Positions 46,120 through 61,999 of a DNA stretch of 64,000 nt are shown here, piece after piece. Below the pieces are notes generated by a model. That model made no database searches. It was not told the DNA's origin and worked only from the letters and a program-made list of their open reading frames with translations. The stretch is from Cellulomonas edaphi. Its GTDB lineage: Bacteria; Actinomycetota; Actinomycetes; Actinomycetales; Cellulomonadaceae. The DNA is taken from contig NZ_JAUCGR010000003.1 in NCBI RefSeq assembly GCF_030362815.1, positions 186,001 to 250,000 of the forward strand, written 5' to 3'. Within the stretch, counting starts at the first letter, position 1. Each line of letters opens with the position of its first letter. Made by a program: the position numbers and the translations under genes.

Positions 46120-49989
<3,870 letters not shown>

Positions 49990-50058
49990 GGGGGGTCCTA
50001 CTTCCTTCGCTTGCCGGCTTCTCACCGGCGGACGGAAATGGTGCAAGGGGTGCGGGCG

Positions 50059-50090
50059 CCCGCCGCCCACCCGTCAGGCAGGGCGGCGGG
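50059..50090 (-). other. hairpin in the rpoB-rpoC gap
   Basis: A perfect 10-bp stem (CCCGCCGCCC with its complement) closes a 12-base loop. It lies just after the rpoB stop without a T tract. It could tune rpoC expression or mark RNA processing. Confidence 0.55.
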
Positions 50091-50098
50091 GCTCGGCG

Positions 50099-53608
<3,510 letters not shown>

Positions 53609-53942
53609 GAGGGGTCCTTCCCTGCAGTTCGTTTGCACGCTGCGCATGGGTCCCGGCGGATCACGACCCCCCGGCCTCGCAGCACTCCACGTCGCGCACG
53701 TACGACGTGTGAGGGCTCGGGTTATACGGGATCGCGGGCACAGGCCAGCGCAAAGCGCTAGCATACTCAGCCCGTCGGGGAAAGTCCACCCCGCACGGAC
53801 GACCGCCAGCGACCCGGGCGTTTCCGCCCATGGACGACCTCGTCGTCGTCGGCGCCATGGTGACACACGCCACCCGTGGGGCGAAACTCCGCGCCGCACA
53901 CTTCGCCCGTCGTCCGCCGCGACGAGCGGGCGGACCGGACGG
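53609..53942 (-). other. rpoB upstream region
   Basis: The gap of about 330 bp between the rplL-side hairpin and rpoB has no gene. It holds a candidate promoter at 53760-53788 and a second -10-like TATAAC near 53725 without a clear -35 box. The leader before the TTG would be about 145 bases. Confidence 0.5.
53760..53788 (-). promoter_or_regulatory. candidate promoter of rpoBC
   Basis: TGGACT (53788-53783) and TATGCT (53765-53760) are 17 bases apart on the minus strand. Start would be near 53753. Confidence 0.5.
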
Positions 53943-55271: not shown

Positions 55272-57881
55272 TCACACGGGAGCGCCGAAGCAGACCAGCG
55301 GCACGAGCGCCCCGCTCTGCGCCCGGTGCTCCTCGACGGCGGTCGCCACCGCCTGGGCGATGGGCACCTGGTCGCGGAGCAGCGCGTGCGTGCGGGTCAT
55401 GACGCGCAGCGCGGTCTCGTCGGGCAGCGGGGCCACGGCCGCGACCACGCACCCCACCCCCGTGCGCAGCAGCACGCTCGCCAGGCCGAGCGCCTCTCCC
55501 CCAGCCCGGATGCTGGCGCGTCCCACCTCGCAGGACGAGAGCAGGACGAGCTCCGGCACGGTCCCGCCCATGTCCAGCTCGTGCGCGAACAGCGGGCCGT
55601 CGGCGAGCCGCACGGACGAGAACAGCGGGTTGTCCGGCTCGTGCCGGCCGTGCGCGGCGAGGTGCACCACCCCGGGCGACGCGAGCAGCTCGACCATGCG
55701 CGCGACGGTCGCCTCCTGCCCGACGAGGACCTCCCCCTGCGGCCACAGGCGCCCGATCTCCTGGGCCTCCGTCTCCGCGTGCCGCAGGCCCGGCCCCGCC
55801 GCGACGCTGACCCGCACCGGCTGGGGCGCCGCGGTACCCGCGTAACGCATCCAGTGGTGCACGGACGGCGCGACGACCGTCGGCAGCCCGGCGCGAGCGG
55901 GCAGCAGGGACCACGGCAGGACGCCGAGCCAGCCGCCCGCGACGACCACGAGCTCGCCGGGCGCGCGCAGCGCCGGTTCGAGCTGCGACTCGATACGGGC
56001 CAGGCTGCGGTCGAGCGACCGGTTCGCCACCGCGCGGAGGTCAGCCGGAACGAGCGGGTTGGCCAGCACCTCGAGGTCGGCGTGCACGCGGCGCACCTGC
56101 TCGGCGAGACCGGCCGCCGGGCCGAGCGAGTGCAGCACGGTGCTGGACGCGTCGACGCGCACCGCGAGCAGGTCGCCACGGTGCTCGAGCACGTCGAGCA
56201 CCACGCTCCCCGAGCGGTCCTCCAGGGTTCGACGCACCTCGGCAGAGCGTGTCGCCCGGGCCCCGCGTGCCGTCCCCCGCTCGTGCCACGAGCGCGCGAG
56301 GATCTCGTGCTTGAGCCGCTGCGCCTCGCGCATGTGGCGGATGCGCACGGGGTCGGACGCAGGCAGGTCCGGCGCCCCGCGGCCCGCGTCGATCAGCCGG
56401 CGCAGGTCCCAGAGCAGCTCGGCGGTCTCCGGATCGCTCGGCGGGCTGACGCGCGGCGAGCCACTGATCACGGAGCGCACACGCTCGACGGCCTCGAGGA
56501 CCGCCGACGGGCGCGCGGTGTCGAGGGCGAGCTGGAGGTCGAGGTCGGCCAGAGCCGTGCCGTGCACGGCCCCCGCCGTCCGCAGGTCGAGGGAGCCGAA
56601 GCGGGCACGGTGGGTCTCGAGGTCGCGCTGGCCGGCACGGACGTAGCGGCCCGCGCGGGCGGGCTCGTGAGCGGCGAGGGCGAGCATCGCCCGGATGCGG
56701 CGGCCGTGCAGCCGCACCGCGAGAGGGTCGTCGGTGCGCACCGGTCCCAGCGCGTCGAGCAGCGCCCCCGGCTCGCGCACCGCACCCCGAGCGAGGTCGG
56801 CCTCGATCCGGACGTACGACGCGGCGAGCTCCCACGTGCGGCGCCCGGTGGCGGCGCACAGCTGCTCCAGCACGGCTGCGCGGCGGGACAGGCCCGTCCA
56901 CGCCGTGCGGGTCCTCCCGCGCGCGGGCGCTGCCGCGAACGAGGCGGCGTCCGCCTGCAGGGCCAGGAGCGTGGCGCGGACGGCCCACGCCTCGTCCCCG
57001 CGGCGCCGGAACCTGCGCCGCGCGGAGGCGGCGAACCGGCGCGCGGCCTCCAGGTCGCCCCGGAGCAGGGCGCACTCCGCGCGGCCCAACTCGCACTCGG
57101 CGACGTCGCGGGTCAGTCGCTGGGCGGCGAACATGGCCGCGGCCTCGGCCAGCGTGCTGTCGGCGACGCCCACCAGCCCGGCCTCGAGCAGCACGTCGCT
57201 GCGGTCGCGCAGGGCGGTCGGTCGCGGCGGTCCGGGCAGGGACCGGCCGGCCGCCTCCATCTGGGCGAGCGCTTCCGGCAGGTGGCCCGCGTAGAAGTGG
57301 ACGTAGCCCAGGTTGTGCTCGGCCTTGAACAGCAGGCGCTCGAAGCCTGCGCGGCGCGACCGGCGCGCGCACTCGGCCAGGTCCTGGCGCGCCGGGCCCA
57401 GCTCGCGGCGCTCGATGTGCAGCACGCCGCGGTTGAGCAGGGCGCGGCAGCCGTCGATCGGGTCGGCGGTGTCGAGCGCGTCGATGACCGCGGTGAGCAG
57501 GCTCATGGCGTCGGCGTGCCGACCTGCGCGCAGCGCCGCCAGCCCGCGGGTCCCGTCGATTGCGGGCTGCAGGCCGGGCCAGACGGTGCCTGCGCCCGCG
57601 GCGACCATGGCCGCGAGCCGGTCCGCCGCCGCACGGGCCCGGCTGCCCGTCTCGGACTCGCTCTTGACCAGCTCGGTCAGAGCACGCGCACGCACGCGCA
57701 CGACGGCGGGGTCCGTGTCGCTCGCGTCGATCTCGTCGAGCGCCGCGAGCGCCGCCAGCAGCCGCCGGCGGGCGCGCTCGGGCCGCCCCTCCCCGTTGTC
57801 GGCGTCGGCGCGGCTGACCTGCTCGGCAACCGCATCGAGTGCTGACGGACCGGCCGCAGCCGGGCCGTGCTCTGGTGACAT
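55272..57881 (-). CDS. TPR-CHAT caspase-like protease
   Basis: The 869-residue protein has helical TPR-like repeats through roughly residues 20-500 and a C-terminal CHAT (caspase HetF-associated with TPRs) domain from about 600. The likely catalytic dyad is His744 in VVHLAAHGRH and Cys784 in LVLLSSCEVG; the domain then continues with GEALGLASVLLRTG and a typical CFGAPV end. No signal peptide or membrane segment is present, so it is cytoplasmic. The ATG at 57881 lies six bases after the stop of the 167-residue gene with only a weak ribosome-binding site, which suggests coupling. It is the third gene of the sigma operon. Cleavage of a neighbour-encoded protein is an inference. Confidence 0.88.
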   Translation of the reverse strand: MSPEHGPAAAGPSALDAVAEQVSRADADNGEGRPERARRRLLAALAALDEIDASDTDPAVVRVRARALTELVKSESETGSRARAAADRLAAMVAAGAGTVWPGLQPAIDGTRGLAALRAGRHADAMSLLTAVIDALDTADPIDGCRALLNRGVLHIERRELGPARQDLAECARRSRRAGFERLLFKAEHNLGYVHFYAGHLPEALAQMEAAGRSLPGPPRPTALRDRSDVLLEAGLVGVADSTLAEAAAMFAAQRLTRDVAECELGRAECALLRGDLEAARRFAASARRRFRRRGDEAWAVRATLLALQADAASFAAAPARGRTRTAWTGLSRRAAVLEQLCAATGRRTWELAASYVRIEADLARGAVREPGALLDALGPVRTDDPLAVRLHGRRIRAMLALAAHEPARAGRYVRAGQRDLETHRARFGSLDLRTAGAVHGTALADLDLQLALDTARPSAVLEAVERVRSVISGSPRVSPPSDPETAELLWDLRRLIDAGRGAPDLPASDPVRIRHMREAQRLKHEILARSWHERGTARGARATRSAEVRRTLEDRSGSVVLDVLEHRGDLLAVRVDASSTVLHSLGPAAGLAEQVRRVHADLEVLANPLVPADLRAVANRSLDRSLARIESQLEPALRAPGELVVVAGGWLGVLPWSLLPARAGLPTVVAPSVHHWMRYAGTAAPQPVRVSVAAGPGLRHAETEAQEIGRLWPQGEVLVGQEATVARMVELLASPGVVHLAAHGRHEPDNPLFSSVRLADGPLFAHELDMGGTVPELVLLSSCEVGRASIRAGGEALGLASVLLRTGVGCVVAAVAPLPDETALRVMTRTHALLRDQVPIAQAVATAVEEHRAQSGALVPLVCFGAPV

Positions 57882-57887
57882 GTGTGC

Positions 57888-58391
57888 CTAGAGCTCGATC
57901 TGGGGCGTGACCACCGGCACGGTGGGGTCGGACGGGCGGCGCAGGACGAGTCGGGCGGGGCCGCGTTCGACGTCGACGAACGAGAACCGACCGTCCTCGT
58001 CGGACGTGGTGACCGTCATGTCACCACCCTGGTGCAGCTCGACCTCGATCTCCTCGGCGGGTGCCGCCCAGCCGTCGACGCGGATAAGACCCGCCTCGGG
58101 GTGGACCGAGATCATGACCGTGAGGACGTCGGTGGTGAACGTGATGGTGCCGGCCTCGATGCTGGTCTCGTCGGCACGCACCGCGAGCGCCGGCTCGCCG
58201 ACGAGCCGCAGCTCGGCGACCTCGGCGTGCAGCGCCTCGATGGTCAGCGCCATGCCGATCCGGTCGACGAGACCCTCCGGCACCGGGTCGGCGACGTCGA
58301 CCATGCGCGCCAGGCTCGCGAAGATCGCCCGGTCCTCCTCGTCGAGCAAGCCGCCGGCCAGGAGGGAGAGGGTGGCTTCGTCGGGGCTCAT
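57888..58391 (-). CDS. putative sigma-partner protein with beta-rich C-terminus
   Basis: The 167-residue protein has a predicted helical N-terminus (residues 3-63, LSLLAGGLLDEEDRAIFASLARM and LVDRIGMALTIEALHAEVAEL). A beta-rich C-terminal half resembles carboxypeptidase-regulatory-like or Ig-like domains (IEVELHQGGDMTVTTSDEDGRFSFVDVE, then ARLVLRRP). It has no membrane helix and no zinc anti-sigma HxxxCxxC motif. Its ATG overlaps the sigma gene stop by four bases (ATGA), with GGAG six bases upstream. By position it may inhibit or chaperone the sigma factor and may be a substrate of the CHAT protease. Both roles are inferred; I cannot name a family with certainty. Confidence 0.7.
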   Translation of the reverse strand: MSPDEATLSLLAGGLLDEEDRAIFASLARMVDVADPVPEGLVDRIGMALTIEALHAEVAELRLVGEPALAVRADETSIEAGTITFTTDVLTVMISVHPEAGLIRVDGWAAPAEEIEVELHQGGDMTVTTSDEDGRFSFVDVERGPARLVLRRPSDPTVPVVTPQIEL

Positions 58392-59017
58392 GAGGTGCTC
58401 CAGGTGGGGTCGGCGGCGAGTGCTGCGCGAAGCTTGGCGAGGCATCGGCCTCTCGTCGGGCCGATGCTCCCGACGGGCATCCCGAGGGCTCGGGAGACGA
58501 CCGCGTAGTCGGGTCGCTCGACCATCGCGACAAGGCCGAGCAGCTTGCGGCACCGGTCGGGGAGCACGCGGACGTGGTTCCACAGCGCCTCGTCGCGCTC
58601 GGAACGGACCGCGACGCTCTCGGGCAGGTCCTCGGCCGGCGCGGTGAGCCAGTCGGTGGCGTGCTCGTCGTTGGTCTGGCGCACCTGCTCGTCGCGCGAG
58701 CGGCGCACCGTGCGCCACGCGGCGCGCTTGGCGGTGACGAGCATCCACTGCAGCGTGGCGCGCGGGTCACGGATCTGCTCGATGTCCCGCACCAGGGTCA
58801 GCCAGACGTTCTGCACGATGTCCTGGGCCTGCTCCTGGTCGGCACCCTGGGCACGGACGGTGTGCCACAGCAGTGGCGTCATGACCTGCACCAGCGCAGC
58901 GAGCGGTGCCGTCTCGCCCGCCCGGTAGGCGAGCACCGCACGCGCTGCCTGGTCAGCCAGGCCCTCCCCCTGGTCGCGGAGCGCGGTGTCGACCGGCTCC
59001 ACCAGGTCGTCACTCAT
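58388..59017 (-). CDS. sigma-70 family (ECF-like) RNA polymerase sigma factor
   Basis: The 209-residue protein has sigma region 2 at about residues 38-108 (QAQDIVQNVWLTLVRDIEQIRDPRATLQWMLVTAKRAAW). Region 4 lies at about 148-202 (RVLPDRCRKLLGLVAMVERPDYAVVSRALGMPVGSIGPTRGRCLAKLRAAL, with a helix-turn-helix). Regions 1 and 3 are absent, as in ECF sigma factors. The ATG at 59017 has GAGGGG six bases upstream; the ATG one codon earlier is spaced too closely. It leads a coupled operon with the 167-residue protein and the CHAT protease, and is divergent from the PFTE-repeat protease, which may be its target. Confidence 0.88.
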   Translation of the reverse strand: MSDDLVEPVDTALRDQGEGLADQAARAVLAYRAGETAPLAALVQVMTPLLWHTVRAQGADQEQAQDIVQNVWLTLVRDIEQIRDPRATLQWMLVTAKRAAWRTVRRSRDEQVRQTNDEHATDWLTAPAEDLPESVAVRSERDEALWNHVRVLPDRCRKLLGLVAMVERPDYAVVSRALGMPVGSIGPTRGRCLAKLRAALAADPTWSTS

Positions 59018-59167
59018 CATGGACCCCTCACAGCTGGCTCGTCGGGCGGCCGCCCCGGCCAGAGTAGGGCGGCCCTCACGAACCGGACAAGGACCGGCGT
59101 CGGCGCCTGGCGGGCGGCGGCTGGTCCTGACTCGGAACGCCCGGAAGGAGTGCTGCTGCGCCGTCCC

Positions 59168-59207
59168 AGATACACGCCCGGATTTCTTCACCCGTTCGTG
59201 TGTATCT
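59168..59207. promoter_or_regulatory. inverted repeat between divergent sigma and protease genes
   Basis: AGATACAC (59168-59175) and GTGTATCT (59200-59207) are perfect 8-bp inverted arms separated by 24 bases, in the 294-bp gap between the sigma and protease genes. Read outward, each arm gives CGTGTATCTG or GTGTATCTG. They could be matching promoter elements for the two directions or a regulator site. The rest of the gap holds no gene. Confidence 0.45.
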
Positions 59208-59311
59208 GCCGTCGGAGGCGGGACTCTTGACGTCGTGCCGCAGCGGTTCGAGGACTGGTGCGGCGGCCAGAGTTTGCCCGTTCGAGCCCCATCCCCCAGG
59301 AGACGCCCGAG

Positions 59312-61105
59312 ATGAGTGAGCAGGAGAGCGCGGACCTCACGCGCGACCAGATCCGCCCGACCAAGCGCAACGTCGAGGACGCGTTGCTCGCCCGCCGCGG
59401 CGTGATCGGCGTGGACATCGGCGAGAAGTGGTCCGGCGGCGCCCCGACCGGGCGTCAGGCGATCGTCGTCCACGTCGCCGCCAAGCGGGGGGACGACGAG
59501 CTGGACGACGCGGAGCGCATCCCCGCGACCATCGACGGCATCCCGACCGACGTGGTGCAGCACCGTGTCTCGGTTCTCTCGGTCCAGGAGCAGGCGGCCG
59601 ACGAGACCGCCGACGCCCCCGCCACCCGGCTGCGCACCCGTCCCCTCGCCGGCGGGCTCAGCTTCGGCCCGGCCGACTCCGTGACGATCCCCGTCGACGG
59701 CGTCGCGCAGCGACGGACGGTCAACGGGACGCTGGGCGTGCTGGTCGTCGAGCGGCACACCGGCCGCACCTTCGGCCTCACCAACTGGCACGTCGCCGCC
59801 GGGGACGGTCTGGAGGACCTCGGCAGCACCTGGATCCAGCCCGCCCTCGCGGACCGCGGCAACCCGCGCACCGACCGGATCGGCGCGCTCGTGCGTGGCA
59901 CGCTCACCGACCGTATCGACGCAGCGGTCGTGGCCCTGGCACCCGGCGCGCGCTGGCTGCCTGGCATCGTCGGCATCGGTCCGGTCACGGGGTCCACCCC
60001 GGCGACGGAAGGCGCGGCGGTCCGCAAGAGCGGCCGTACCACCGGGCTGCGGACGGGCACCGTCACCTCGACCGACTACACGACGTCCGTCGACTTCGGT
60101 CCCGGGATCGGGTGGCGCACCCTGCGGGAGCAGGTCCGCATCGAGCCGACCGGCGGCGAGCCGTTCTCGGCCGGCGGCGACTCGGGCTCCGCCGTCGTCG
60201 ACGAGCAGGGCCGGGTGGTCGCGCTGCTGTGGGCGGGCGAGGACGACGGCAGCTTCGCGGTGGCCAGCCCCATCGCGGTGGTCCAGGACACGCTGGGGGT
60301 CGACGTGCTCAGCGTGCAGCGCGCCCGCGCGTTGGCCGCTGCGCGGTCGAAGGCGGCGCAGGCTCGCCGTGTGCCGGCGTTCAGCAGCTGGGGCGCGGCG
60401 CTGCCGCCGATCTCGGCGGCCTACGGCTCGCGGCGCCGGCGGCGGCCCGCAGCAGGCCGTGACGGTCAGGCGCACGCGCGTCCGGCGGCACGACCGGCAG
60501 CACGTCCCGCGCCCGGTGCCTGGACCGACGGGGCCGGGAGCCAGGACGCCGGCGCGAGCGCCCGTCGCCCCGGTGGGTCGGGCGGGGTGCACGGGCAACC
60601 GTTCACGGAGCCTTTCACCGAGCCGTTCACCGAGCCGTTCACGGAGCCGTTCACGGAGGCGCTCGGGGCTGAACCCTTCACCGAACCCTTCACCGAGCCG
60701 TTCACGGAGCCGTTCACCGAACCCTTCACGGAGCCGTTCACCGAACCCTTCACGGAGCCGTTCACCGAGGCCGTCGGCGCGGACCCGTTCACGGAACCTT
60801 TCACGGAGCCGTTCACCGAACCCTTCACGGAGCCCTTCACCGAGCCCTTCACCGAACCGTTCACCGAGGCCGTCGGAGCCGACCCGTTCACGGAGCCCTT
60901 CACCGAACCGTTCACAGAGCCCTTCACGGAGCCGTTCACCGAGCCGTTCACCGAGCCCTTCACCGAACCGTTCACCGAGCCCTTCACCGAGGGCGCGACC
61001 GGAGCGCCGTCCGCCCCGCAGAGCCGCGCCCGGATCGTCGCTGCCCTGCGCCTGCGGGAAGCGTTCTGGGCCGGCTACATCGCCGCCATCACGCGGGGAC
61101 GCTGA
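59312..61105 (+). CDS. trypsin-like serine protease with PFTE-repeat tail
   Basis: The 597-residue protein has an N-terminal region (1-110) beginning MSEQESADLTRDQIRPTKRN, then a trypsin-like domain. Its triad is His160 in TNWHVAAGDG, Asp203 in TDRIDAAVVAL and Ser291 in GGDSGSAVVDEQG. A Pro/Ala/Arg-rich linker (about 375-429) leads to 29 PFTE tetrapeptides in four blocks (430-560), and the end is LRLREAFWAGYIAAITRGR. There is no signal peptide, so this S1-like protease is probably intracellular. The ATG at 59312 has AGGAG nine bases upstream. It is divergent from the sigma-CHAT operon and followed by a 279-residue gene. Confidence 0.85.
   Translation: MSEQESADLTRDQIRPTKRNVEDALLARRGVIGVDIGEKWSGGAPTGRQAIVVHVAAKRGDDELDDAERIPATIDGIPTDVVQHRVSVLSVQEQAADETADAPATRLRTRPLAGGLSFGPADSVTIPVDGVAQRRTVNGTLGVLVVERHTGRTFGLTNWHVAAGDGLEDLGSTWIQPALADRGNPRTDRIGALVRGTLTDRIDAAVVALAPGARWLPGIVGIGPVTGSTPATEGAAVRKSGRTTGLRTGTVTSTDYTTSVDFGPGIGWRTLREQVRIEPTGGEPFSAGGDSGSAVVDEQGRVVALLWAGEDDGSFAVASPIAVVQDTLGVDVLSVQRARALAAARSKAAQARRVPAFSSWGAALPPISAAYGSRRRRRPAAGRDGQAHARPAARPAARPAPGAWTDGAGSQDAGASARRPGGSGGVHGQPFTEPFTEPFTEPFTEPFTEALGAEPFTEPFTEPFTEPFTEPFTEPFTEPFTEPFTEAVGADPFTEPFTEPFTEPFTEPFTEPFTEPFTEAVGADPFTEPFTEPFTEPFTEPFTEPFTEPFTEPFTEPFTEGATGAPSAPQSRARIVAALRLREAFWAGYIAAITRGR
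60599..60991 (+). repeat. PFTE tetrapeptide-coding repeat array
   Basis: The array codes for 29 PFTE units in blocks of 5, 8, 7 and 9. The blocks are divided by ALGAE, AVGAD and AVGAD spacers, 131 codons in all. Units are 12 bp but vary at synonymous positions (CCG/CCC/CCT, ACC/ACG/ACA, GAG/GAA) while the peptide never changes within blocks. The array is in frame throughout. Confidence 0.9.
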
Positions 61106-61159
61106 CCGGGCCACCGACCGGCAGGCATCAGACCGTCACGCACGAGAGAGGAACGAGGC

Positions 61160-61999
61160 ATGTCCGTGACCGACGTCGCACACCCCGTCGACCGTCGACC
61201 GGCGCTCCACGCGGTCCAGCCCACCCACGGCTCGACCGACCTGCCCCGTCGCCCGCTGGTGCGCGAGCTCGAGGACGTCGTCGAGCGGATGCACGAGCTC
61301 GGGCCGTCGCCCCGGCTCCGCGCGGACCTCGTGTCGATGCTCGGCTCCTGGGCCTCGGCCCTCGTGGGCCTGCACCGCTCGCGCGTGTCGATCACGGCTG
61401 CCGAGCCGGCTCTGCCCTGGGTGCTGGAGGACGGGCTGCCGGCCTGGCTGGACGACCTCCCGGTCGAAGCCGGCCAGGTCTGGGCCGTGCGGGCGCACCC
61501 CGCCACGCAGCGGGCCCTCGACCGGACGCTGGCCGGCTGGTCGGCGGTGCAGAACACGCACGGCGACCCCGGTGGGGACGTCGTGACGATCGAGCGCGAG
61601 CACGGCACCGTGCGCGCGCACCTGGACGCAGCCGACGGGTCGCCGTGCCGGGGGGTGCTCGGCGACCCGCGGTGGGACGTCGCGACCGCAGCCGACTGGC
61701 TCGCGGTGGCGCTCGGCCCCGCGCTCGACCCGCGATGGGGCATCGACCCCGCGGCGACGTTCGTCAGCCGGTACCGGGCGCACGGCGGCGACGCCCTGCC
61801 CTCCCGGGACATGGCTGTGGCACGCACGCTGACCACCGCGGTCGAGTGGACGGCCCAGCTGGCCGTCCTGTCCGAGCCCGACGACGAGGCGCTCGCCTGG
61901 CTGTCGGGTCTGTGGAGCCGGCCGCTGGCGCTGCTGGGCGCGTCCGTCGGGAGCCCGACGGGCGACGCCCGGCGGCGTGCCGGCGCTCCACCGGTGTAG
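61160..61999 (+). CDS. hypothetical protein of the CHAT-sigma-protease module
   Basis: The 279-residue soluble protein has no signal peptide or membrane segment. The N-terminal third is helical (PLVRELEDVVERMHELGPSPRLRADLVSMLGSWASALVGLH). The C-terminal part (GDPRWDVATAADWLAVALG, then FVSRYRAHGGDALPSRDMAVARTL) faintly resembles the end of aminoglycoside phosphotransferase-like kinases, but I see no ATP-binding or catalytic loop, so this is a weak guess. The ATG at 61160 has a GAGAGGAAC site about nine bases upstream. It follows the protease gene by 54 bp on the same strand and is probably cotranscribed. Function is unknown. Confidence 0.7.
   Translation: MSVTDVAHPVDRRPALHAVQPTHGSTDLPRRPLVRELEDVVERMHELGPSPRLRADLVSMLGSWASALVGLHRSRVSITAAEPALPWVLEDGLPAWLDDLPVEAGQVWAVRAHPATQRALDRTLAGWSAVQNTHGDPGGDVVTIEREHGTVRAHLDAADGSPCRGVLGDPRWDVATAADWLAVALGPALDPRWGIDPAATFVSRYRAHGGDALPSRDMAVARTLTTAVEWTAQLAVLSEPDDEALAWLSGLWSRPLALLGASVGSPTGDARRRAGAPPV

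What the first reader, a model, noticed from the sequence alone, without database searches (positions are those of the whole stretch)
55272..61999. Five-gene sigma / TPR-CHAT / trypsin-PFTE module inside the ribosomal-RNA polymerase gene cluster
Two divergent transcription units form one module. One has a sigma-70-family factor, a 167-residue protein and a TPR-CHAT protease. The other has a trypsin-like protease with a PFTE-repeat tail and a 279-residue protein. Two unrelated protease folds plus a dedicated sigma factor suggest a proteolytic signalling or conflict-response system. CHAT and trypsin-like domains are known from bacterial conflict systems; this exact set is not one that I can name.
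Basis: partly seen in the sequence, partly recalled or inferred. Interest (0 to 1): 0.9.

Follow-up and report, generated by a model that had tools for sequence, protein, structure and literature searches.

The report
Caspase-like protease switch for sigma factor
Between two ribosomal-protein operons, this Cellulomonas-type genome carries a gene set, widespread in its bacterial family, for a sigma factor, a small partner protein and a caspase-like protease; the protease likely switches genes on by cutting the partner, which would free the sigma factor, and this branch has a trypsin-like protease gene instead of the subtilisin-like one that most relatives carry.

Summary
The five genes are real and sit where stated. 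The core, ECF sigma / 167-residue protein (p167) / TPR-CHAT protease, is syntenic in 75 of 80 fetched family loci; 69 of those 75 lie between rplA and rplJ. In 63 of 80 a subtilisin-like (S8) gene stands between p167 and CHAT; in 10, the window included, there is instead a divergent trypsin-like gene. Both protease types often carry short tandem repeats. Catalytic residues of all three protease types are invariant. A promoter-like element, RTGTATCWG and near variants, lies upstream of sigma in 57 of 79 loci; an opposite-strand copy occurs in exactly the 10 trypsin loci. The core matches the published gene context of ECF54 sigma factors (PMC8999054, passages). Not found in print: p167 read not as a carboxypeptidase but as a helix-linker-beta protein with an Arg invariant in 115 of 115 inside a disordered linker, hence the candidate anti-sigma factor and CHAT substrate; the trypsin variant; the shared element; the kinase-like fifth protein. 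Best reading: CHAT-triggered sigma release, like Craspase without CRISPR. Conflict or defence is not supported.

The parts
55272..57881 (-). TPR-CHAT caspase-like protease, 869 aa; dyad His744/Cys784
   Evidence: Pfam CHAT 89 bits; H740, H744, C784 in 80 of 80 family proteins; TPR-like N-terminal half
57888..58391 (-). p167: candidate anti-sigma factor / CHAT substrate; helices 5-13, 18-34, 41-64, low-confidence linker 58-78 with Arg72, beta-sandwich from 82
   Evidence: AF2 model of A1, mean pLDDT 81, pTM 0.52; PF13620 weak hit, under cut-off; Arg72 in 115 of 115; beside sigma in 75 of 80 family loci
58388..59020 (-). ECF-type sigma factor, 210 aa (ECF54-like by context)
   Evidence: TIGR02937 48.3 bits over cut-off; alignment A3
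59167..59175 (-). RTGTATCWG promoter-like element of the sigma-p167-CHAT unit (GTGTATCTG on the minus strand)
59200..59208 (+). RTGTATCWG promoter-like element of the trypsin unit (GTGTATCTG)
   Evidence: opposite-strand copy in 10 of 10 trypsin loci, 0 of 69 other family loci
59312..61105 (+). Trypsin-like protease with NAL1-like N-terminus, 29 PFT[EQ] units and C-terminal FW[AS]G[YF] tail; triad H160, D203, S291
   Evidence: Trypsin_2 E 1e-4, NAL1_N E 0.004, both under cut-off; H and D 10 of 10, GDSGS 10 of 10; tails
61160..61999 (+). p279: APH/choline-kinase-like C-lobe, likely pseudokinase; optional member
   Evidence: APH profile in 2 of 17 aligned members, best E 3e-5; AF2 pTM 0.81; top Foldseek hits are APH-like and choline kinases, E 0.02-0.1, none under 0.001

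Best explanation
This module likely works like CRISPR Craspase without the CRISPR part: the TPR-CHAT protease is predicted to cut the 167-residue partner protein in its disordered linker (likely at the invariant Arg72), which would release the ECF sigma factor that the partner likely holds inactive. Freed sigma would then read the RTGTATCWG elements, raising its own operon and, in this branch, the divergent trypsin unit: a positive-feedback proteolytic switch with a predicted very small regulon. The trypsin (a subtilisin in most relatives) would be the output or amplifier protease; its short tandem-repeat array would act as a spacer or docking array. p279 would be a kinase-fold accessory with a likely non-catalytic, partner-binding role. 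Shown: gene set, synteny, co-occurrence and co-absence, intact catalytic residues, shared element, Arg invariance. Predicted by AlphaFold2: the helix-linker-beta layout. Inferred: binding of sigma by p167, cleavage by CHAT, use of the element by this sigma, the signal, and the protease targets.
For: Core synteny in 75 of 80 fetched family loci. In 40 class loci, picked by hand from 78 genomes with hits, 38 have sigma beside p167 and 26 have CHAT within the stretch. Co-occurrence p167/CHAT: family (both E 1e-3) 80 both, 38 neither, 2 CHAT only, 1 p167 only; class (p167 E 1e-3, CHAT E 1e-40) 70 both, 235 neither, 32 CHAT only, 8 p167 only. Of the 14 class genomes without a CHAT beside p167, 13 have a strong match elsewhere. 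CHAT is the protease present throughout the family loci with p167: L077 and L082 have neither S8 nor trypsin yet keep Arg72. p167 layout with low-confidence stretch 58-78. Arg72 115 of 115, mostly V-R-[GSA]. Catalytic residues intact. Element: 57 of 79 family loci against a shuffle mean of 1.5 (maximum 6 in 300), 12 of 38 class loci against 0.65 (maximum 5); upstream of rplA, rplJ, rpoB, rplL, rplK 0 of 68, 0 of 76, 0 of 72, 0 of 76, 2 of 66; opposite-strand copy in 10 of 10 trypsin loci and 0 of 69 others; 3 copies of RTGTATCWG in this whole genome, two of them here, reversed control 0. Precedents: Csx29 cuts Csx30, which binds and inhibits CASP-sigma (PMC10028731 passages); HetF can cut PatU3, which limits HetZ (PMC12288457 passages).
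Against: No binding or cleavage was tested. The helices of p167 have no listed match to a known anti-sigma fold (matches cover residues 78-167 in the main, so the helices are barely tested). Arg72 is also invariant in the 14 loci without adjacent CHAT, so it does not discriminate. 22 of 79 family and 26 of 38 class loci lack the pattern used (some family loci show near variants), and 14 of those 26 class loci do have CHAT. 32 class genomes have CHAT without a detected p167. In other genomes the strict element finds the module's own site in only 6 of 12, and the reversed control is at least as common in 6 of 12. The repeats share no residue that one protease would cut after (PFTE, PYTQ, PYST, NPFTRT, GYGDGV).
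Confidence: 0.55

Rival explanations
1. ECF54 as published: the proteases degrade the sigma factor itself and keep it inactive, with no anti-sigma factor; p167 would be an adaptor or scaffold that delivers sigma to CHAT.
For: Proposed for ECF54 in a review (PMC8999054 section 3.3 passages). The sigma-p167 pairing also fits an adaptor.
Against: If the 'carboxypeptidase' of that model is p167, as I infer, it matches only a CarboxypepD_reg/Ig-like domain and no peptidase domain. An invariant Arg in a disordered linker of p167 is left unexplained.
Confidence: 0.2
2. Conflict or abortive-infection system: TPR-CHAT senses an invader and triggers trypsin or subtilisin to kill the cell; sigma boosts expression.
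For: Caspase-like and trypsin-like peptidases occur in predicted conflict systems, and some caspase systems sit beside ECF sigma genes (PMC8195603 passages).
Against: Fixed place between ribosomal genes (69 of 75), identities track rpoB (r 0.79-0.83), no PADLOC match. The TPR blocks are only moderately less conserved than the CHAT blocks (top-residue frequency 0.41-0.64 against 0.55-0.70, 19 sequences), not hypervariable.
Confidence: 0.12
3. Proteostasis switch: TPR-CHAT senses translation or misfolding stress (hence the ribosomal address) and the serine protease clears cytosolic proteins; sigma release works as in the best explanation but the ribosomal position is functional.
For: Retained between rplA and rplJ in 69 of 75 family loci; serine proteases lack obvious signal peptides (by eye; no predictor run).
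Against: None of the 40 class loci showed ribosomal neighbours in the same scan, though some stretches are short, and L085 in the family is elsewhere, so the address is not needed; 38 of 121 family genomes lack both p167 and CHAT.
Confidence: 0.13

Closest known systems
ECF54 sigma-factor neighbourhood (Actinobacteria)
   Same: ECF sigma with neighbours described as carboxypeptidase, subtilase and CHAT (PMC8999054 passages); the S8-type relatives here have the same list of neighbours
   Different: Here the subtilase is absent and a divergent trypsin with PFTE repeats plus an optional kinase-like protein is present; the 'carboxypeptidase' is read as a non-enzymatic candidate anti-sigma factor; membership by the ECF54 sequence model was not testable
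Type III-E CRISPR Craspase: Csx29 / Csx30 / CASP-sigma
   Same: TPR-CHAT protease, sigma factor and a third protein encoded together; the third protein (Csx30) has two domains and is cut in a flexible loop (PMC10028731 passages)
   Different: No RAMP-family protein (PF03787) in this genome, so no Cas7-11 candidate; p167 is 167 aa against about 565 in Csx30; Csx31 not looked for; a profile of this CHAT listed no Csx29 in PDB, only TPR-type proteins
HetF-PatU3-HetZ (Anabaena)
   Same: HetF, whose name is in that of the CHAT domain, can cleave an inhibitor of a gene regulator (PMC12288457 passages)
   Different: No sigma factor in that account; other substrate; developmental context
EACC/EAD caspase and trypsin conflict systems
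   Same: Caspase-like and trypsin-like peptidases, some with ECF sigma neighbours (PMC8195603 passages)
   Different: No such adaptor domain named in the Pfam and PADLOC scans (whether their models are in these libraries was not checked); core-genome inheritance
NARROW LEAF 1-type trypsin-like proteases
   Same: N-terminal and catalytic similarity (NAL1_N E 0.004; NAL1 chains E 0.0017-0.12)
   Different: Weak; the PFTE array and FW[AS]G[YF] tail are not described there as far as I recall

Membership tests
ECF54 group | Two-domain ECF sigma factor | tested here: met
   TIGR02937 over cut-off, full-length match
ECF54 group | Neighbour with CHAT domain | tested here: met
   75 of 80 family loci
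ECF54 group | Neighbour annotated carboxypeptidase | tested here: inconclusive
   p167 matches CarboxypepD_reg weakly (E 2e-4, under cut-off); a number of listed homologues carry PF13620 or 'carboxypeptidase regulatory-like' names; no peptidase domain found
ECF54 group | Neighbour subtilase | tested here: not met
   No S8 hit in the window's locus or in the other 9 trypsin loci; present in 63 of 80 family loci between p167 and CHAT
ECF54 group | Score against the ECF54 group model | not testable with these tools
   Model not in the libraries used; classification paper not held
Type III-E Craspase | TPR-CHAT protease beside a sigma factor and a third protein | tested here: met
Type III-E Craspase | Cas7-11 in the system | tested here: not met
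   Neighbours are ribosomal genes; 0 RAMP (PF03787) matches in the whole genome, control rings in 4 of 14 genomes; works-like only
Anti-sigma factor (for p167) | Constant pairing with one sigma factor | tested here: met
   75 of 80 family loci; 38 of 40 class loci
Anti-sigma factor (for p167) | Known anti-sigma fold | tested here: inconclusive
   Three helices predicted; listed matches cover the beta domain
Anti-sigma factor (for p167) | Binds and inhibits sigma | not testable with these tools
   No complex prediction or bench work available
Catalytic CHAT protease | His-Cys dyad | tested here: met
   H744, C784 in 80 of 80
Trypsin-like (S1) protease | His-Asp-Ser triad | tested here: met
   H160, D203 in 10 of 10, GDSGS in 10 of 10
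APH/choline kinase (for p279) | Catalytic Asp of the HxD motif conserved | tested here: not met
   H134 invariant but the following HxD Asp is replaced or displaced in 6 of 17 rows; filed as kinase-like, not kinase
Known defence system | PADLOC model match | tested here: not met
   0 families for all five proteins

The most novel reading that the evidence does not exclude
A widespread, CRISPR-free 'caspase-to-sigma' pathway: in Actinomycetes a TPR-CHAT protease cuts a dedicated anti-sigma factor after one invariant arginine, releases an ECF sigma whose regulon is essentially its own locus, and so fires a self-amplifying cascade of serine proteases. The serine protease is interchangeable (subtilisin or trypsin), is tied into the circuit by acquiring the RTGTATCWG promoter, and often bears a tandem-repeat array. 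This would be the ancestral logic of which Craspase is the RNA-guided version.
Probability: 0.35. Interest if true: 0.85.

Novelty: new variant of a known kind. Interest (0 to 1): 0.66.

Why it matters
In the papers that I could see, ECF54 systems are only a gene neighbourhood with a proposal that proteases control sigma. This work names a specific substrate, a specific candidate cleavage residue, a specific promoter element and an interchangeable effector protease, each testable by a direct experiment. If right, it would give a non-CRISPR, largely vertically inherited example of a caspase-like protease controlling transcription, and would show one protease fold standing in for another inside a conserved circuit.

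Tried and rejected
Rejected: the ribosomal address as needed for function (class loci carry the module elsewhere). Rejected: PFTE-type repeats as a shared cleavage site (no common residue across lineages). Rejected: the element as a palindromic operator (spacing between the two copies varies between trypsin loci, and the other family loci have it in one direction only). Tried: a wider regulon. The third genomic copy lies upstream of an ATP-dependent DNA ligase gene in this genome (named by me from its sequence). A ligase search of 33 three-kilobase loci, 3 from this genome and 30 of the 70 places in 12 other genomes, found only that one. Tried: matching the p167 helices to an anti-sigma fold; none listed. 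Tried: sequence link of p167 to PDB; 3 matches, all E 0.3 or worse. Tried: linking this CHAT to Csx29 by sequence in PDB; only TPR-type proteins listed. Tried: strict regular expressions for catalytic motifs, which passed only 45 of 80 CHAT and 53 of 65 S8; replaced by alignment columns (where the third trypsin column was set one residue off, on the Gly after Ser291, so the Ser rests on the GDSGS motif). Literature: full-text searches (plus 80, 81 on CHAT substrates). Passages were seen of PMC10028731, PMC8999054, PMC8103513 (nothing relevant), PMC12288457 and PMC8195603; no paper was read whole. Casas-Pastor 2021, Huang 2015 and the HetF-PatU3 paper of 2022 were not held, so the original ECF54 description was not seen. 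Rows apart: L083 (contig fragment), L084 and L086 (second copies), L087 and L088 (diverged version) count as lacking the core synteny. Limits: the genome search scored only some candidates per genome (at most 7, 30, 10, 2), so its counts are lower bounds; start codons were set by my own rule.
Full report
WHAT IS THERE. The window (G000:C3:186001-250000) belongs near Cellulomonas: the seven named loci with a relative of the CHAT protein are all Cellulomonas. On the minus strand it reads nusG-rplK-rplA, then the module, then rplJ-rplL-rpoB (the ribosomal and NusG names are borne out, rpoB is my reading of the sequence). Sigma and p167 overlap by 4 nt and p167 and CHAT are 6 nt apart, so they likely form one operon. 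The commonest sigma/p167 arrangement in the family is the same 4-nt overlap (38 of 75). The trypsin and p279 run the other way; the 291-nt gap between the sigma and trypsin starts holds both promoter-like elements.

HOW GENERAL IT IS. The CHAT protein was found in 82 of 121 family genomes and p167 in 81 of the same 121: 80 have both, 38 neither, 2 only CHAT, 1 only p167 (genomes are related, so the odds ratio is no probability). I fetched 80 loci, chosen from the matches. Sigma, p167 and CHAT are in order in 75 of 80. In 63 an S8 protease stands between p167 and CHAT, in 10 a divergent trypsin stands beside sigma and no S8 is seen, and in 2 (L077, L082) there is neither. The five others are a fragment (L083), two second copies (L084, L086) and two diverged versions (L087, L088). 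Of the 75, 69 have rplA and rplJ as neighbours and one more (L081) has rplA and rplL; four are cut by contig ends and one (L085) shows no ribosomal neighbour. Over the class, 78 of 345 genomes have a p167 match at 1e-3 and 102 this CHAT at 1e-40: 70 both, 235 neither, 32 CHAT only, 8 p167 only. Of 40 class loci, picked by hand from the hits with near-duplicates skipped, 38 have sigma beside p167, 26 have CHAT and 27 an S8 hit within the stretch, and none showed ribosomal neighbours; some stretches end at contig ends. For the 14 without adjacent CHAT, 13 genomes have a strong match elsewhere; the 14th assembly is 75% complete. Relatives of the trypsin domain exist outside the family at lower identity (132 proteins, 120 listed); their context was not examined.

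THE PROTEASE CHANGE. In an rpoB tree the nine trypsin-type rows with rpoB and the two diverged ones make up one group of 11 (SH-aLRT 84; quick tree, no bootstrap, midpoint root) inside a supported group whose other members are S8-type, apart from the fragment L083. One replacement of S8 by trypsin, followed by further change in L087 and L088, is the simplest reading; the label needs 2 changes on the tree, so it is not proved. CHAT, sigma and p167 identities follow rpoB (r 0.79, 0.81, 0.83; permutation maxima 0.10-0.20; 69 loci), which fits largely vertical inheritance.

REPEATS. The trypsin here carries 29 PFT[EQ] units; of 8 trypsin proteins with a readable tail after the array, 7 share FW[AS]G[YF] and L092 does not. 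S8 proteins carry arrays between a prodomain-like region (my reading) and the catalytic Asp: PYTQ, PFTQ, PYTE, PYST, PFTS, NPFHST and, outside the family, NPFTRT, NPYGRT, GYGDGV. Runs of at least 12 residues repeating at a fixed offset of 3-8 occur in 35 of 65 S8, 9 of 10 trypsin and 0 of 224 control proteins. The place is conserved and the sequence drifts, so I read them as spacer or docking arrays, not as cleavage sites.

CATALYSIS. CHAT His740, His744 and Cys784: 80 of 80. S8 Asp/His/Ser: 65 of 65, the two weak ones of L087 and L088 included. Trypsin His160 and Asp203: 10 of 10; the Ser motif GDSGS: 10 of 10.

THE ELEMENT. Upstream of sigma, TGTATCA occurs in 40 of 79 loci against 0.1 expected from ten first-order shuffles. 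The broader pattern occurs in 57 of 79, against a shuffle mean of 1.5, and in 12 of 38 class loci, against 0.65; all 12 have CHAT adjacent, but so do 14 of the 26 without it. Upstream of rplA, rplJ, rpoB and rplL (windows set at the open frame) it is absent (0 of 68, 76, 72, 76) and upstream of rplK it is in 2 of 66. A weak GAA-like preference about 16-18 nt upstream would fit an ECF -35. The opposite-strand copy is in all 10 trypsin loci and in none of the other 69 family loci (an earlier pass with a mis-set start in L098 gave 9). In this genome RTGTATCWG occurs three times, two of them here. In 12 other genomes the strict pattern finds the module's own site in 6, and the reversed control is at least as common in 6. 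That the element is read by this sigma is inferred from its presence beside sigma in and outside the family.

p279. Two of 17 aligned members match APH (best 3e-5); the model (pTM 0.81) has APH-like and choline kinases as its top Foldseek hits (E 0.02-0.1, none under 0.001), and the HxD Asp is replaced or displaced in 6 of 17 rows. It is missing in L092, L096 and L098, where trypsin abuts rplA. Of the 36 homologues found, those listed with an organism name are Cellulomonas but for one.

MECHANISM AND COMPARISON. Csx29 cuts Csx30, which binds and inhibits CASP-sigma, and HetF can cut PatU3, which limits HetZ. The present module has the same kinds of parts without RNA guidance; no RAMP-family protein was found in this genome. 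It likely works like these; it is not a member of Craspase. It is best filed as a trypsin variant of the ECF54 neighbourhood, with membership by sequence model untested.

Noticed in passing
L087, L088 (genomes G020, G093): Same genus and same rplA-rplJ slot, but a strongly diverged module: sigma and S8-like genes divergent from CHAT, with only a weak p167 hit in G093 and none in G020. The slot seems to hold alternative versions.
   Followed up: partly
13 family loci such as L044, L045, L080: A second CHAT match directly behind the first; tandem duplicates in most, while L059 looks like a split gene.
   Followed up: no
L182:3959-3967 (G000:C1:113458-113466): Third genomic RTGTATCWG copy, about 30-80 nt upstream of a gene that reads as an ATP-dependent DNA ligase; no ligase in the other 32 element loci examined.
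   Followed up: partly
window 57891-57908 (-), p167 residues 162-167: The extreme C-terminus TPxIEL is nearly invariant in the family (T 74, P 74, E 74 of 75), as for a docking tail.
   Followed up: no
G210:C154, G284:C7, G454:C22: p167 matches with one in-frame stop each in class genomes; not examined.
   Followed up: no
window 49886-53761 (+): A 1291-codon open frame runs antisense to rpoB; such frames are expected in high-GC DNA and are not evidence of a gene.
   Followed up: no
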